From NCBI GenBank assembly GCA_029563075.1, contig JAKQTN010000067.1, forward strand, positions 1 to 64,000: a stretch of DNA of 64,000 nucleotides. The letters are read 5' to 3'. Of this stretch, positions 31,737-46,753 are shown piece after piece. A program made the position numbers and the translations under genes. The notes below the pieces were generated by a model. The model saw only the letters and a list, made by a program, of their open reading frames with translations. It was not told the DNA's origin and searched no databases. The DNA is from Pseudomonadota bacterium. GTDB lineage: Bacteria > Pseudomonadota > Gammaproteobacteria > Burkholderiales > Methylophilaceae. Numbering within the stretch: position 1 is the first letter of the stretch; each line of letters begins with the position of its first letter.

Positions 31737-33020
31737 TTGTATATTTCCCAACAAATCGCCGCAAATGCAGTAGCCCAAGTATTATCTGGCCGTAACCTTA
31801 CGCTGGCATTGCCGGATGCGCTTAAAGGTTACCCCACGGCAACGCCGCAACAACGCGGTGCGGCGGCTGATTTAAGTTATGGCACATTGCGGTTTTATGG
31901 TGAAGTGAGCGCTTACTTGACGCAGTTGCTAGAAAAACCGTTGAGCAATCAGCACATTACCGCGCTGTTGCTGGTGGCGATATATCAGCTGCTGCATGAC
32001 AAGGCCGATGATTTTACCGTGGTGAATCAGGCCGTAAAGGCTGCGAGTTATGCCAAGCCAAAGTGGGCGAAAGGTTTGGTGAACGGCGTGTTGCGTAATT
32101 TTCTACGGCAAAAAGATGCGCTTGCCGAGAAAATGAAAGTGGATGAAGTCGCCATTTATTCTTATCCAAAGTGGTGGATTAAAAAGCTTAGAAGCCAATA
32201 TCCAAAATCTTGGCGGAGCATTTTAGGAACAGGTAATGAGCATCCTCCCATGACGTTACGGGTGAATATCAGAAAAACCAATGCACAGGAATATTGCCAG
32301 CTATTAGCGCGCAAGAATATTGAGGCTTTACCGTTAGGCGCGCAGGCCGTGATGCTCACTAAACCGTTGCCTGTGGAGCAGGTATCGGGCTTTGCAGATG
32401 GCGTGGTTTCGGTGCAGGATTATGGCGCGCAGCTGGCAGCGCATTTGCTGGAAGTTCAACCTGGCATGCGCGTGCTGGATGCCTGCAGCGCGCCCGGCGG
32501 CAAAACCGGCCATATTTTAGAGCTAGCGGATGTGGACTTAACCGCGCTGGATAACGATGCTGGCCGTTTGAACCGCGTGGAAAGCAATTTGAAACGGCTT
32601 AACTTAAGCGCGAATTTGCAGCTGGGCGATGCGAGCACCTGGAAAACCGAAAAGTCATTTGACCGCATTCTGGCCGATGTGCCATGTACCGCGTCTGGTA
32701 TCGTGCGCAGGCATGTGGATATTAAATGGTTGCGGCGCGAGCCGGATATCGCCTCATTTTGCGCACAACAGGCGCTCATTTTGGCTAATTTGTGGCAATT
32801 ATTGGCAAAAGGCGGTAAATTACTCTATATAACGTGTTCAATTTTTAATGAAGAAAATCAGCAGCAAATTGACGATTTTTTGCAAAAAAATAACGATGCA
32901 ACTCAGTTACCGCTTTTATTGACTAATGAGATTGATAAGAACATTCAAATTGCAAATGGTCAACTTATCCCTTCCAGCCAGCACGATGGCCTTTTTTATG
33001 CGTTATTGCAAAAAACTTAG
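31737..33020 (+). CDS. rsmB: 16S rRNA (cytosine(967)-C(5))-methyltransferase
   Basis: NusB-like N-terminus; VLDACSAPGGKTGHILEL; LADVPCTASGIVRRHVDIKW; YITCSIFNEEN. Confidence 0.95.
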   Translation: MYISQQIAANAVAQVLSGRNLTLALPDALKGYPTATPQQRGAAADLSYGTLRFYGEVSAYLTQLLEKPLSNQHITALLLVAIYQLLHDKADDFTVVNQAVKAASYAKPKWAKGLVNGVLRNFLRQKDALAEKMKVDEVAIYSYPKWWIKKLRSQYPKSWRSILGTGNEHPPMTLRVNIRKTNAQEYCQLLARKNIEALPLGAQAVMLTKPLPVEQVSGFADGVVSVQDYGAQLAAHLLEVQPGMRVLDACSAPGGKTGHILELADVDLTALDNDAGRLNRVESNLKRLNLSANLQLGDASTWKTEKSFDRILADVPCTASGIVRRHVDIKWLRREPDIASFCAQQALILANLWQLLAKGGKLLYITCSIFNEENQQQIDDFLQKNNDATQLPLLLTNEIDKNIQIANGQLIPSSQHDGLFYALLQKT

Positions 33021-33579
33021 CTATTTATGGAGCTTGGGTCTGCTTTTGCTCCTGCTGGGCATGTTTTCGCTTGCAATTGCGGCTGAGAGCAGTATTAGAA
33101 TTAAAAGCGCAGAACTGCAGTTGCTGGAAGATTTTTACAGCCTAAGCGCAGATGCGGAAATGAGCTTCGATAAAGAAATCGAGGAGGCGGTGAATAAAGG
33201 CGTGCCGCTTAGTTTTTTAATCGAGTTTCAAATTGTGAGGCCGCGTAAATACTGGTTTGACGATGAAATTGTGACCACGTCTCAGGAGGTGACTTTGAGT
33301 TATCATGCATTGAGCCGCCAATATTTGGTGAATCGCGATGCACATCAGCAGTCTTTTGAGAGTTTGAACGAGGCCGCACAAGCGTTGGTTCAGATAGATG
33401 AATGGAAAGTGGTAGAAAAGACAGACTTGGAAAAAGGTGAAACTTACAGGGCGGCCATGTTGATACGCCTAGACCAGACCAAGCTGCCCAAGGCGATTCA
33501 AGTGGATACGATTGGCTCTGAAAAGTGGAACCTGACTTCGCAAAAATTCGAGTGGACGTTAAAAGAGCTCAATAAATGA
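32998..33579 (+). CDS. DUF4390 domain protein
   Basis: Signal sequence; IRIKSAELQLLEDFYSLSADAEMSFDKEIEEAVNKGVPLSFLIEFQI; overlaps rsmB. Confidence 0.88.
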   Translation: MRYCKKLSYLWSLGLLLLLLGMFSLAIAAESSIRIKSAELQLLEDFYSLSADAEMSFDKEIEEAVNKGVPLSFLIEFQIVRPRKYWFDDEIVTTSQEVTLSYHALSRQYLVNRDAHQQSFESLNEAAQALVQIDEWKVVEKTDLEKGETYRAAMLIRLDQTKLPKAIQVDTIGSEKWNLTSQKFEWTLKELNK

Positions 33580-33598: not shown

Positions 33599-35863
33599 AT
33601 GAGATATATTTTATTTGTAAGCGTGGCGTTGGGTATCGTGTTGTTGTACCTGCTTTCGCTTGCAAGTGCCAATACTGCCGCATCCGGTGATTATTACAAA
33701 ATTCTGTTATACCTGAACATCACTCTGGCGGGCGTTCTGGTTATACTCATTGGTGTTCAGCTATGGCTTTTGGCAAAAAAAATCAAAAGCAGGGTGATGG
33801 GCAGCCGCCTCACTTTGCGCCTTTTGGGCACGTTTGCGTTAATGGCGATTATTCCCGGCCTCATTGTATATCTGGTTTCGGTGAATTTTTTAACGCGTTC
33901 GATTGAATCCTGGTTCAATGTAAAAGTTGAGTCCGCCCTCGATGGCGGCTTGAGTTTGGGGCAGCGCGCGCTGGATATCATGCTGGCAGATGTTGAGGAG
34001 AAGGCCGAGAATATAGCAACCAGCCTGGCTTTTCAGCCGACGCGGAGTCACTATAGCCTTTTGAACGATTTGCGGGAAAAGTCTGGCATACAGGATGCAA
34101 CACTGCTTACGCCACAAGGCCGTATTTTATCGGTATCTAGTAGCGATCCGAACAGTTTCCTGCCTGAATTGCCCAGCATTCCGCAATTACGCCAGGCACA
34201 AAGTCGCGTGTACGGCAAAATCGAGCCGATTCCCAATAAAGGGCTTTATTTGCGCGTATTGGCGCCAGTGAATGTGCAGGAGATTGCAGGTGAAACGCGA
34301 ATTCTGCAATTATTGCAGCCCGTGCCTAAGTCGCTGTCCAACACGGCTGAGGCGGTGCAGGAGGTATATCGCGATTATCAGGAGCTTTCCTATAGTCGCA
34401 ATTCGTTGAAAGACATTTTTGCGCTTACGCTTACTCTGGTGCTGATGCTCGCCATGTTGTCCGCATTGGCAATCGCCTTTGTGCTAAGCCGCAGGTTGAC
34501 GCAACCGCTAACTGTACTGGCAGAAGGCACACGTGCCATTGCCAGCGGCGATTACAGCACCATGTTGCCGGAGCATGGCAAAGATGAGCTGGGCATATTG
34601 GTGAAATCATTTAACAGTATGACGCGCCAGCTTGGCGATGCCACGCGGGCGACCGAGAGAAACAGGGCGCGTGTCGAGGCGGCACGTGGCTATCTGGAAA
34701 CTATTTTGGCACATTTGTCTTCAGGCGTGCTGGCGATCAATGAAAAGGCCGAGCTACGCACATATAACGTGGCGGCAAGCAATATTCTGGGTGTAAGCCT
34801 TACCCCATTTGAAAATAAGCCGTTTGCAAAAATCGCAGAAAGCCAGACTTTTTTGGCTGAATTTATTCAGTTATTGCAATCTCATTTTGAAATCACCAAA
34901 GCCAAAGAGCAGGAAAAGCAGGAGTTGACCAGACAAATCGAGATTGTACGGCCGCAAGGCAAGCAATTGCTGTTAGTGCGCGCCACACGCTTGCCAGATA
35001 GTGCGGGCAGCGGTTTTGTGGTGGTGTTCGATGATGTGACTACCATGGTACAGGCGCAACGCGATGCGGCATGGGGTGAAGTGGCGCGCCGGCTGGCGCA
35101 TGAAATCAAGAATCCGCTGACGCCGATTCAGCTTTCAGCCGAGCGTTTGCAGCATAAACTCCATGCAAAATTAAATGAAGAGGATGCCAGCGTGCTGCAA
35201 CGTGCAACCGATACCATTGTCAACCAGGTGAGCGCCATGAAAAGCATGGTGAATGAATTCAGTGAGTATGCACGCGCGCCTTCGGCTACTTTAATCAAGC
35301 TGAATCTCAACCGGCTGATAAAAGATGTCTCGGCGCTTTATGAAGGCGCCAGGGAGGATAGTGCGCATGCCAGAATCATATTTAGCCTGGCGCCCGACAT
35401 GCCGGACATGAAGGGTGATGCAACCATGCTGCGGCAGGTGCTGCATAATTTGATGCAGAACGCGCAGGATGCGCTCATGCACACAGAAAATCCGGAAATT
35501 CTGGTGCAAACCAAGTTTGATGAAACTTCCATACAACTCGTGGTAAAGGATAATGGGCAGGGCTTCCCGCTAGATCTGCTAAGCCATGCGTTCGAGCCTT
35601 ATGTGACGACCAAGGCGCATGGCACTGGCTTGGGCTTGGCAATCGTTAAAAAAATGATTGAAGAACATTCTGGCCAGATTAAAATAGAAAACAACCCAAC
35701 AGGCGGCGCGTGTATTACTATTGTGTTACCAATTGAAAGATCAGTCGATAAAAATGAAGCCAAAATGAACAACGAAAATAATGTAAAAGGTGCGAAGAAA
35801 CAAGCAACTCAAAAGCCGGCAACGAATAATAGAAATAAACAGAAAATGGTAAGGGAAGTGTAA
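33599..35863 (+). CDS. ntrY: NtrY-like sensor histidine kinase
   Basis: N-terminal TMs, HAMP, PAS, H-box RRLAHEIKNPLTPIQLSAERL, G-box GTGLGLAIVKKMIEEHSG. Confidence 0.93.
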   Translation: MRYILFVSVALGIVLLYLLSLASANTAASGDYYKILLYLNITLAGVLVILIGVQLWLLAKKIKSRVMGSRLTLRLLGTFALMAIIPGLIVYLVSVNFLTRSIESWFNVKVESALDGGLSLGQRALDIMLADVEEKAENIATSLAFQPTRSHYSLLNDLREKSGIQDATLLTPQGRILSVSSSDPNSFLPELPSIPQLRQAQSRVYGKIEPIPNKGLYLRVLAPVNVQEIAGETRILQLLQPVPKSLSNTAEAVQEVYRDYQELSYSRNSLKDIFALTLTLVLMLAMLSALAIAFVLSRRLTQPLTVLAEGTRAIASGDYSTMLPEHGKDELGILVKSFNSMTRQLGDATRATERNRARVEAARGYLETILAHLSSGVLAINEKAELRTYNVAASNILGVSLTPFENKPFAKIAESQTFLAEFIQLLQSHFEITKAKEQEKQELTRQIEIVRPQGKQLLLVRATRLPDSAGSGFVVVFDDVTTMVQAQRDAAWGEVARRLAHEIKNPLTPIQLSAERLQHKLHAKLNEEDASVLQRATDTIVNQVSAMKSMVNEFSEYARAPSATLIKLNLNRLIKDVSALYEGAREDSAHARIIFSLAPDMPDMKGDATMLRQVLHNLMQNAQDALMHTENPEILVQTKFDETSIQLVVKDNGQGFPLDLLSHAFEPYVTTKAHGTGLGLAIVKKMIEEHSGQIKIENNPTGGACITIVLPIERSVDKNEAKMNNENNVKGAKKQATQKPATNNRNKQKMVREV

Positions 35864-35865
35864 AC

Positions 35866-37134
35866 ATGGCGTCACGAAATATTTTGGTAGTGGATGATGA
35901 GATCGGCATTCGCGAATTATTAAGTGAGATATTGCTTGATGAAGGGCATCAGGTACTGCTTGCTGAAAATGCGCAGACCGCACGTGATGCACGCTTGAAA
36001 CAGCGTCCGGATATGGTGCTGCTGGATATCTGGATGCCGGACTGTGATGGCATCAGCTTGCTGAAAGAATGGGGGAATGCCGGTTTGCTGACGATGCCGG
36101 TGGTGATGATGTCGGGCCACGGTACGATTGATACCGCAGTGGAAGCCACGCGTATTGGGGCGTTCGATTTCCTGGAAAAGCCGATTGCCTTGCAGAAATT
36201 GCTTAAAACGGTCGCTGCTGCACTCAAGCATGCGGAAAATTTGCCTAAAACTGAAATGAATCTGGCCAGCTTTGGTAAAAGCCTGGTGATCAATGAGCTG
36301 AAGCAGCGTCTGGAGCAAATTTCGCGTACCAAAAACGCCTTATTGCTGATTGGCAAAAAAGGCGGCAGTGTCGAGATGTGCGCGCGGTTCTTACATTTGG
36401 CTGGCACGCCCTGGCTAGGCTTAACCGAATACGAAAAACTGGCCACTGCGCCATTGGAGTTGTTAGAACAGGCGCATGACGGCATTGTGTTTATAGACGA
36501 AGTCTCAGCGCTCAATAAAACCGAACAAAAAGGCCTGCAATTGTTGCTGGCGAAAGCCGAAAAATACCAGACGCGTGTGGTGTGTGCAAGCTCCTTAAGC
36601 TTGCCGCAACTTGCCGAGAATGCGCAGTTTGATAACGCATTGTTGCAGACACTTTCAACCAGTACGCTCAAAGTGCCTGCCTTGAATGATCACCGCGAGG
36701 ATATTCCAGACCTTGCCACAGCCATGGCGAATTTGCTGGTAGAAACTTCTGGCGCGCAATACAAAAGCTTTGATATTGCGGCCTTGAACGCCTTAAGAAA
36801 TGCCGACTGGCCCGGCGATTTGGTTGAGTTGGATGCTGTAGTGCAGAACCTGGTGTTGAGCAGTTTGGAAGAAAAAATCACGCTCAGCGATGTGCATCGT
36901 GTGCTGGAGCAGTTCAGCAGCAGCCCTGAAAATCAGGCATCTAAGCTGCAATCATTGCCGGTGAATCTTGCGCTGCCGCTGCGTGAGGCGCGCGACGATT
37001 TTGAGCGTTTCTATTTTCAACATCACATGGCCATGATTAACAATAACATGAGTAAACTGGCGGAGATCTCAGGCCTGGAGCGCACTCACTTATACCGCAA
37101 ACTCAAACAGCTGGGCATTAAAATAAAAGGCTAG
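35866..37134 (+). CDS. ntrX: NtrX-like response regulator with degenerate AAA+ domain and Fis-type HTH
   Basis: Receiver domain (VLLDIWMPDCDG, MMSGHGTID, FLEKP); C-terminal NNNMSKLAEISGLERTHLYRKLKQLGI; no canonical Walker A or GAFTGA seen. Confidence 0.88.
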   Translation: MASRNILVVDDEIGIRELLSEILLDEGHQVLLAENAQTARDARLKQRPDMVLLDIWMPDCDGISLLKEWGNAGLLTMPVVMMSGHGTIDTAVEATRIGAFDFLEKPIALQKLLKTVAAALKHAENLPKTEMNLASFGKSLVINELKQRLEQISRTKNALLLIGKKGGSVEMCARFLHLAGTPWLGLTEYEKLATAPLELLEQAHDGIVFIDEVSALNKTEQKGLQLLLAKAEKYQTRVVCASSLSLPQLAENAQFDNALLQTLSTSTLKVPALNDHREDIPDLATAMANLLVETSGAQYKSFDIAALNALRNADWPGDLVELDAVVQNLVLSSLEEKITLSDVHRVLEQFSSSPENQASKLQSLPVNLALPLREARDDFERFYFQHHMAMINNNMSKLAEISGLERTHLYRKLKQLGIKIKG

Positions 37135-45172: not shown

Positions 45173-46753
45173 TTACAAAGATTTTCGCAAGTTGGCTGGC
45201 GGAATGTTCAGCGACTCCCGGTATTTTGCAATGGTGCGGCGCGCTACGACAATGCCCTGTTTAGCCAAAATTTCGCTGAACTGGCTGTCAGACAGCGGTT
45301 TTTTTATGTTTTCTTCTGCGACCATTTGCTTAATCAGTGCGCGAATCGCCGTGGCGGAGCACTCGCCACCCGCATCGGTTGCCACATGGCTGCCAAAAAA
45401 GTATTTCAGCTCATATACACCGCGTGGCGTGAGCATGTATTTGTGCGTCGTGACGCGCGAAATGGTCGATTCGTGCAATTCAAGTTCTTCGGCAATCTCG
45501 CGCAATACCAGTGGCCGCATGGCGATTTCACCATGCTCAAAAAAGTTGCGCTGCCGGTCTACGATAGCCTGCGAAACACGCAGAATGGTTGAAAATCGCT
45601 GCTGGATATTTTTAATCATCCATTTGGCTTCCTGCATTTGCGTCTGCAAATACTGATTCGAGTTTTCGCGGTTGCGCTTCAAAATATCGGCATACACCTG
45701 GTTAATACGCAGCTTGGGAATGACGCCGTCATTGAGCGTTGCAATCCAGATTCCTTTGACTTTTTTAACAATCACTTCGTGCTGTATGAAGTGATCGGAG
45801 CCAAGCTGAGCATACTTGCTGCCTGGGCGTGGGTTTTGCTGTTTGATGAGATTCTGCGCACCTTTTAAGGTGGCTTCATCGCAGTTGAGCAGCTTGCGTA
45901 GTTTGATGAAATCTTTATTGGCCAATAAGGCTAAATGCTGTGCTACGATGGTTTTTGCGACCCCCAGATATTCAGTCTCTTTTGGCAATACATTCAGCTG
46001 TAACAGGATGCACTCTTGTAGGTTGGTTGCACCAATGCCGGGCGGATCTAAATTCTGGATATGCTTCAGCGCGGTTTGCAGCTCGACTAACTCTATTTCT
46101 AGTTCGAGTGGAAGCGATTCTTCCAACTCTTCCAGCGATTCTTCTAAATAACCATCTTCGTTAATGCTATCAATCAGCAGAAATACCAAATTTTGATCGC
46201 GCTCAGAAAGCGGCATGAGTTTTAGCTGGTTTAGCAGGTGTTCGCGCAAGCTTTCGGAAACAATTTCCTGGCGTGTATAGTCGCCGTCATCATCGTCGCT
46301 GTTGCTTTGGCGGCTGCCTTCATCCCAATTGCTGGCGCTGCCATATTCTTCGTAATCTTCGTCGAAATCGGTGGCAGAAAAATCCTCTCCGGTACTTGAT
46401 ATTTCCAGGGGTTTTTCTTCTGTGGCATCTGACGTTGTACTGGTAGTTTCTAGGTAATCAATATTGCTGAAAGGCTCAAAATCGTCACTGTCAATTTGCG
46501 AGGATTGTTCACCATCGGCGCCAATCGGATCGCTATTAACATCATTTTGCTGTTCTGGGAGTGTACTTTCATCCTCGAAATCGGCGTCAGGGTTATCACT
46601 CTCAACCAGTTCCAGCAATGGATTTTCCTGCAGAATCGTATCAAGCTCTTGATTGAGTTCAAGCGAAGAGAGCTGCAGCAGGCGAATGGATTGCTGCAGC
46701 TGCGGCGTGAGCGCCAGGTTCTGAGAAATTCTTAATTGTAAATTTTGCTTCAT
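45173..46753 (-). CDS. rpoN: RNA polymerase sigma-54 factor
   Basis: LALTPQLQQSIRLLQLSSLEL; RPLVLREIAEELELHESTISRVTTHKYMLTPRGVYELKYFF; ARRTIAKYRESLNIP (RpoN box). Confidence 0.98.
   Translation of the reverse strand: MKQNLQLRISQNLALTPQLQQSIRLLQLSSLELNQELDTILQENPLLELVESDNPDADFEDESTLPEQQNDVNSDPIGADGEQSSQIDSDDFEPFSNIDYLETTSTTSDATEEKPLEISSTGEDFSATDFDEDYEEYGSASNWDEGSRQSNSDDDDGDYTRQEIVSESLREHLLNQLKLMPLSERDQNLVFLLIDSINEDGYLEESLEELEESLPLELEIELVELQTALKHIQNLDPPGIGATNLQECILLQLNVLPKETEYLGVAKTIVAQHLALLANKDFIKLRKLLNCDEATLKGAQNLIKQQNPRPGSKYAQLGSDHFIQHEVIVKKVKGIWIATLNDGVIPKLRINQVYADILKRNRENSNQYLQTQMQEAKWMIKNIQQRFSTILRVSQAIVDRQRNFFEHGEIAMRPLVLREIAEELELHESTISRVTTHKYMLTPRGVYELKYFFGSHVATDAGGECSATAIRALIKQMVAEENIKKPLSDSQFSEILAKQGIVVARRTIAKYRESLNIPPANLRKSL

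What the first reader, a model, noticed from the sequence alone, without database searches (positions are those of the whole stretch)
35866..37134. NtrX-like regulator with a dismantled sigma-54 activator (AAA+) domain
The receiver and Fis-type HTH look intact, but the central domain reads LLLIGKKGGSVEM where a GxxGxGKE Walker A is expected, replacing the catalytic Lys by Val. The stretch from Walker A to the Walker B-like GIVFIDEVSAL is only ~48 residues, versus ~75 in canonical family members, and no GAFTGA loop is present. It probably cannot hydrolyse ATP or remodel sigma-54 holoenzyme, so it may act as a classical DNA-binding regulator or repressor. Other NtrX proteins (e.g. Neisseria) are known to lack GAFTGA, but loss of the P-loop as well looks more extreme. 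rpoN is present in the same window.
Basis: partly seen in the sequence, partly recalled or inferred. Interest (0 to 1): 0.62.

Follow-up and report, generated by a model that had tools for sequence, protein, structure and literature searches.

The report
NtrX regulator with dead ATPase domain
This bacterial gene switch carries a broken motor domain that can almost certainly no longer burn ATP; the breakage is real, but it is the normal state of this protein across a whole group of bacteria (the Betaproteobacteria) and was already known in outline, so it is an instructive but largely ordinary case of a protein domain decaying stepwise.

Summary
The 422-aa ORF at 35866-37134 is NtrX, downstream of rsmB, a DUF4390 (PlrP) gene and ntrY. 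Its receiver and Fis-type HTH are intact. Its central AAA+ domain lacks the Walker A lysine, the L1/GAFTGA segment, both arginine fingers and the sensor II arginine. Twelve species of the genus share this, so it is not a sequencing error. It is also not unusual. Of 47 surveyed loci of the same order that keep the domain, 46 lack the P-loop lysine and none has GAFTGA; none of 90 closer orthologues has the lysine. Alpha NtrX lost only the L1 motif. Gamma NtrX lost L1 and usually an arginine finger. Beta NtrX lost everything catalytic. Some beta lineages, in at least three places on the tree, have no AAA+ domain at all. The remnant still folds as AAA+ and is under purifying selection. Beta-type NtrX persists in genomes with no detectable rpoN. 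Best reading: a phosphorylation-controlled, sigma-54-independent DNA-binding regulator in which a pseudo-AAA+ domain serves as scaffold. Beta NtrX lacking a working AAA+ domain is already published. Added here: the graded decay, repeated full excision, and that most surveyed beta families keep a folded pseudo-domain.

The parts
35866..37134 (+). ntrX (plrR-type), 422 aa response regulator
35875..36219 (+). receiver domain (residues 4-118); D10, D11, D54, S83, K105 present
   Evidence: PF00072 E 1.3e-26; residues invariant in 46 orthologues and in 12 species of the genus
36262..36684 (+). pseudo-AAA+ core (residues 133-273), shortened
   Evidence: PF14532 E 4e-41; AlphaFold model pLDDT mostly 84-93 here; Foldseek match to NtrC1 AAA+ 1ny6
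36352..36375 (+). P-loop remnant GKKGGSVE (residues 163-170), no lysine
36427..36429 (+). site of the L1/GAFTGA-helix deletion (between residues 187 and 188 in the alignment); interval 171-206 is 35 residues against 53-54 in gamma and alpha NtrX
36481..36501 (+). Walker B-like GIVFIDE (residues 206-212); the D is not conserved in orthologues
   Evidence: D211 in 21 of 90 close orthologues, 2 of 47 order loci
36628..36657 (+). arginine-finger region FDNALLQTLS (residues 255-264), both Arg lost
36685..36909 (+). AAA+ lid (residues 274-348); sensor II Arg replaced by Val320; lineage-specific invariant H276, N308, R311
   Evidence: PF25601 E 5e-11
36910..36963 (+). fast-evolving linker (residues 349-366), low pLDDT
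36964..37131 (+). Fis-type HTH (residues 367-422), ERTHLYRKLK recognition region
   Evidence: PF02954; invariant columns
33599..35863 (+). ntrY (plrS-type) sensor kinase, cognate of NtrX
   Evidence: HAMP, HisKA, HATPase_c and NtrY_N matches
32926..33579 (+). DUF4390 gene (plrP homologue); the true start is probably downstream of the listed ORF start
   Evidence: PF14334 E 3e-50
31737..33020 (+). rsmB, 16S rRNA m5C methyltransferase, head of the conserved cluster
   Evidence: PF01189 E 1.4e-51

Best explanation
The protein is the betaproteobacterial NtrX (PlrR-type), the output of the RsmB-PlrP-NtrY-NtrX locus. NtrY phosphorylates D54 of the receiver. The phosphorylated protein binds DNA as a dimer through its Fis-type HTH and regulates sigma-70-type promoters by ordinary activation or repression. 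The central domain is a folded pseudo-AAA+ module. It cannot hydrolyse ATP, form the ATP-bridged ring or contact sigma-54, and it is kept as a structural spacer, dimerisation or regulatory scaffold. Shown by sequence: loss of every catalytic and sigma-54-contact element, intact receiver and HTH, purifying selection on the remnant, retention without detectable rpoN, and full removal of the domain in sister lineages that keep receiver and HTH. Inferred: phosphorylation by NtrY, dimeric DNA binding, promoter type, and the scaffold role.
For: No orthologue keeps the full catalytic set: P-loop Lys 0/90 close orthologues and 1/47 across the order; first Arg finger 0/47; sensor II Arg 1/47; GAFTGA 0/119 NtrX with a central domain. 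The same lesion is in 12 species of the genus. pN/pS is about 0.15 in the AAA core and 0.12 in the lid, against 0.51 in the linker and 0.05 in the receiver, so the dead domain is not drifting freely. AlphaFold keeps the alpha/beta core and lid, and Foldseek superposes it on NtrC1 AAA+ 1ny6_A (TMt 0.75, 2.3 A). Complete excision with receiver and HTH retained is seen in 15 tree rows placed in at least three positions. Beta-type NtrX with a partial domain occurs without a sigma-54 DNA-binding domain in G375 (single contig, 100% complete), G327 and G529; the excised form does so in G318, G362, G386, G461, G479 and G510. Literature: beta NtrX is described as lacking the AAA+ domain and PlrR as receiver plus DNA-binding domain (PMC13001219). 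Several bEBPs without GAFTGA regulate sigma-70 promoters, some without ATP hydrolysis (PMC10274813).
Against: No biochemistry was done. Walker B here still reads IDE and P-loop glycines remain, so weak nucleotide binding cannot be excluded. dS is near saturation in the genus set, so absolute omega is rough; only the contrast between domains is firm. rpoN absence rests on one Pfam model in draft genomes, and a truncated rpoN without the DNA-binding domain would be missed. No target promoters were identified.
Confidence: 0.85

Rival explanations
1. The remnant domain has become a ligand sensor: it binds a nucleotide or second messenger in the old cleft without hydrolysis, and this tunes DNA binding, as c-di-GMP does in VpsR and FleQ.
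For: VpsR and FleQ are among the best structural matches of the full model. P-loop glycine G166 and the acidic residue at 212 are conserved in the 90 close orthologues. The domain is under purifying selection, with new invariant residues R148, P196, H276, N308 and R311.
Against: Repeated complete excision of the domain in sister lineages argues against an indispensable sensing role. No known ligand-binding motif was recognised. The cleft has lost the lysine, the sensor II Arg and the Arg fingers.
Confidence: 0.15
2. The domain is a passive relic on its way to deletion: only foldability is selected, and it could be removed without effect.
For: Graded loss across alpha, gamma and beta NtrX, and at least three placements of full excision on the tree. 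The AAA core evolves about three times faster than the receiver.
Against: pN/pS of about 0.15 and lineage-specific invariant positions. The partial form persists over most families sampled in the order.
Confidence: 0.3
3. It is still a sigma-54 activator that works through partner NtrC-family subunits in mixed rings.
For: Six intact NtrC-family proteins and rpoN are in the same genome.
Against: The arginine-finger and sensor II residues needed between subunits are gone. Orthologues persist without detectable rpoN. The whole AAA+ domain is dispensable in sister lineages.
Confidence: 0.02
4. Sequencing or assembly error, or a recent pseudogene in this genome.
For: None found.
Against: The same state in 12 species of the genus, open frames, and strong codon-level constraint.
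Confidence: 0.01

Closest known systems
Betaproteobacterial NtrX / Bordetella PlrR (PlrSR-PlrP system, PMC13001219)
   Same: Same locus order rsmB-plrP-ntrY-ntrX, same receiver and Fis HTH, and described as lacking a functional AAA+ domain
   Different: Members of the complete-excision group seen here keep only receiver, linker and HTH; the paper describes PlrR as receiver plus DNA-binding domain. The window protein keeps a folded, shortened pseudo-AAA+ domain
PDB 3co5 (isolated Sigma54_activ_2 domain; Neisseria gonorrhoeae by my recollection)
   Same: Same shortened domain, P-loop without Lys (GEAGSPFE), no L1 segment; aligned over 138 residues, E 5e-17
   Different: Different lineage; only the isolated domain is solved
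Alphaproteobacterial NtrX (Brucella, PDB 5m7n/5m7o/5m7p)
   Same: Best full-length match (E 2e-55; top Foldseek hits); also lacks GAFTGA
   Different: Alpha NtrX keep P-loop Lys, Walker B, both Arg fingers and sensor II, and the Brucella PDB set includes complexes with ATP and ADP
bEBPs without GAFTGA that act at sigma-70 promoters (R. capsulatus and Caulobacter NtrC; VpsR)
   Same: NtrC-family architecture with the sigma-54 contact loop missing (PMC10274813)
   Different: In the window protein the P-loop, Arg fingers and sensor II are lost as well. The paper predicts that Caulobacter NtrC still uses ATP

Membership tests
NtrX (betaproteobacterial, PlrR-type) | Encoded directly after ntrY in a rsmB-DUF4390-ntrY-ntrX cluster | tested here: met
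NtrX (betaproteobacterial, PlrR-type) | Intact receiver with phospho-acceptor Asp and Fis-type HTH | tested here: met
NtrX (betaproteobacterial, PlrR-type) | Best NCBIfam match is the NtrX equivalog model | tested here: inconclusive
   NF051870 NtrX is top hit (265.7 bits) but below its cut-off of 600, as expected for a shortened domain
NtrX (betaproteobacterial, PlrR-type) | Groups with other order-level NtrYX in a tree that leaves out the AAA+ domain | tested here: met
   64 rows of the order against 13 gamma rows, split supported at 100
Sigma-54 activator (functional bEBP) | Walker A lysine | tested here: not met
   Val169; 0/90 close orthologues have Lys
Sigma-54 activator (functional bEBP) | GAFTGA L1 loop | tested here: not met
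Sigma-54 activator (functional bEBP) | Arginine fingers and sensor II arginine | tested here: not met
Sigma-54 activator (functional bEBP) | AAA+ fold of the central domain | tested here: met
   AlphaFold plus Foldseek, 1ny6_A TMt 0.75
Sigma-54 activator (functional bEBP) | ATP hydrolysis and sigma-54 dependence | not testable with these tools
   needs biochemistry; orthologues occur without detectable rpoN

The most novel reading that the evidence does not exclude
NtrX records a stepwise conversion of a sigma-54 activator into a classical response regulator: L1 lost first, then an arginine finger, then the whole ATPase site with the L1 helix, then the entire domain, removed independently at least three times. 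In lineages such as Methylotenera the catalytically dead AAA+ domain has been re-used, under selection, as a non-enzymatic scaffold or sensor with its own invariant residues.
Probability: 0.4. Interest if true: 0.5.

Novelty: new member of a known kind. Interest (0 to 1): 0.3.

Why it matters
Genome annotation calls these proteins sigma-54-dependent regulators (Pfam Sigma54_activ_2), which is very probably wrong for the betaproteobacterial form, including homologues that matter for respiration and persistence in Neisseria and Bordetella. The series of intact, partly dead, dead and excised domains within one orthologous, syntenic regulator gives a natural experiment on how an ATP-driven activator becomes an ordinary DNA-binding one. 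It also corrects the published shorthand that beta NtrX simply lack the domain: most families sampled here keep a folded pseudo-domain.

Tried and rejected
Sequencing error or pseudogene: rejected. rpoN proximity as functional evidence: rejected, rpoN lies in its usual lpt-rpoN-hprK-rapZ cluster, and some NtrX-bearing genomes lack a sigma-54 DNA-binding domain. Mixed rings with intact paralogues: considered, judged very unlikely. Promoter scan upstream of ntrX: one sigma-70-like match at 35658-35685, not above shuffles. Repeat search for an operator: no inverted repeat of 14 nt or more around the gene. NCBIfam equivalog cut-off not reached. The Atack 2013 Neisseria NtrX paper is not in the library, and Bonato 2016 (Herbaspirillum NtrX) was only seen as a citation, so how far they already described the domain loss could not be checked. 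Regex motif calls under-counted the intact P-loops and finger/sensor motifs of gamma NtrX; the alignment-based counts replace them.

Full report
What was checked. The ORF 35866-37134 (+) encodes 422 aa. It has a receiver (PF00072), a Sigma54_activ_2 domain (PF14532, E 4e-41), an AAA lid (PF25601) and a Fis HTH (PF02954); the ordinary PF00158 model matches only its second half. It follows rsmB, a DUF4390 gene and ntrY. The genome has six intact NtrC-family proteins, which served as internal controls in the alignment.

The lesion. Against those paralogues the window protein has Val169 in place of the P-loop Lys. It lacks the segment that carries the L1/GAFTGA loop, lacks about ten residues after Walker B, and has lost both arginine fingers (FDNALLQTLS) and the sensor II arginine (WPGDLVEL). 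Walker B still reads IDE here, but the Asp is not conserved in orthologues (21 of 90 close ones, 2 of 47 order loci). The receiver catalytic residues are invariant in the genus and across 46 orthologues, and most of the HTH recognition region is too.

It is general, not peculiar. Thirteen of the other 14 genomes of the genus searched carry a close orthologue, two of them cut by contig ends. The exception, G002 (87% complete), has only distant receiver matches. Eighty further loci came from Methylophilaceae and other Betaproteobacteria. Sampling the class and order through the neighbouring DUF4390 gene (181 of 274 class genomes; 237 of 250 order genomes) and taking NtrX from 133 loci gave a graded series. 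Alpha NtrX (13): no GAFTGA, everything else intact in 12. Gamma NtrX (59): no GAFTGA, P-loop Lys in 49, first Arg finger in 46, second Arg finger in 9, Walker B Asp in 20. Order-level beta NtrX with a domain (47): P-loop Lys in 1 (L227), first Arg finger in 0, sensor II Arg in 1, interval between P-loop and Walker B 35 residues instead of 53-54.

Complete excision. Fourteen loci of the order in the set have NtrX of only 194-266 aa: receiver, variable linker and Fis HTH, with nothing between. On a tree built without the AAA+ columns (NtrY plus receiver plus HTH, 77 rows, quick IQ-TREE with SH-aLRT support only), the short form needs three changes and the starred branches force three. The gamma full-length forms are one side of a fully supported branch. 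The most economical reading is one partial decay at the base of the order followed by at least three excisions; direction is inferred, and gene transfer was not tested.

Selection and structure. In 12 species of the genus, pN/pS is 0.05 in the receiver, 0.15 in the AAA core, 0.12 in the lid, 0.51 in the linker and 0.08 in the HTH; dS is near saturation, so only the contrast is trustworthy. AlphaFold gives mean pLDDT 83, with the AAA core at about 84-93 and a disordered linker at 353-362. Foldseek ranks Brucella NtrX first and superposes the central domain on active-state NtrC1 AAA+ (1ny6_A, TMt 0.75, 2.3 A). The domain is therefore predicted to be a folded pseudo-AAA+ rather than a degenerate stretch. 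A solved isolated domain of the same short type exists (3co5).

Sigma-54. In 47 order genomes biased to small size, 12 had no Sigma54_DBD match. Among them, G375 (single contig, 100% complete), G327 and G529 carry the partial-domain NtrX, and G318, G362, G386, G461, G479 and G510 carry the excised form. NtrX is thus kept where no sigma-54 is detectable. The rpoN of the window sits in the usual lptC-lptA-...-hprK-rapZ cluster and is no argument for a link.

Mechanism. The most likely mechanism is phosphorylation of D54 by NtrY, modulated through PlrP (supported genetically for the Bordetella homologues, PMC13001219), followed by dimeric DNA binding through the Fis HTH and sigma-70-type control. 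Sequence supports the loss of ATPase, ring assembly and sigma-54 contact. The phosphorylation, DNA binding, promoter type and scaffold role are inferred.

Known or new. That betaproteobacterial NtrX lack the AAA+ domain of alpha NtrX is in the literature (PMC13001219 introduction), and bEBPs without GAFTGA acting at sigma-70 promoters are known (PMC10274813). An Azoarcus Tn-Seq study reports ntrX as putatively essential (PMC9769520). The window protein is an ordinary member of this group. Two primary papers that may already contain part of them (Atack 2013; Bonato 2016) could not be read.

Noticed in passing
L227 (G370): Only one of the 47 domain-bearing order-level NtrX sampled keeps a P-loop lysine (GEPGVGKS); either an early-branching holdout or a reversion.
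   Followed up: no
L194 (G484:C1:156706-157047 and flanks): A 194-aa NtrX-like protein (receiver plus Fis HTH) in a genome sampled without DUF4390 or a sigma-54 DNA-binding domain; the six genomes of that family (f212) sampled all lack a DUF4390 match, a possible exception to the reported PlrP-NtrYX linkage.
   Followed up: partly
G002 (same genus, 1.4 Mb, 87% complete): The only genome of the genus searched with no NtrX orthologue: either missing sequence or loss in a reduced genome.
   Followed up: no
gamma loci L120-L179: Gamma NtrX mostly keep the P-loop but have His or Gln at the second arginine finger (FREDLYYHLN/QLN), suggesting they too are probably poor ATPases while still able to bind nucleotide.
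   Followed up: partly
window 45173-46753 (-): rpoN lies about 8 kb downstream of ntrX with lptC, lptA, hprK and rapZ; the spacing looks similar in some other Methylophilaceae (G401, G476, G440).
   Followed up: partly
window 35658-35685 (+): A sigma-70-like site in the 3' end of ntrY, the position where Bordetella has an internal promoter for plrR; not above chance in the scan.
   Followed up: partly
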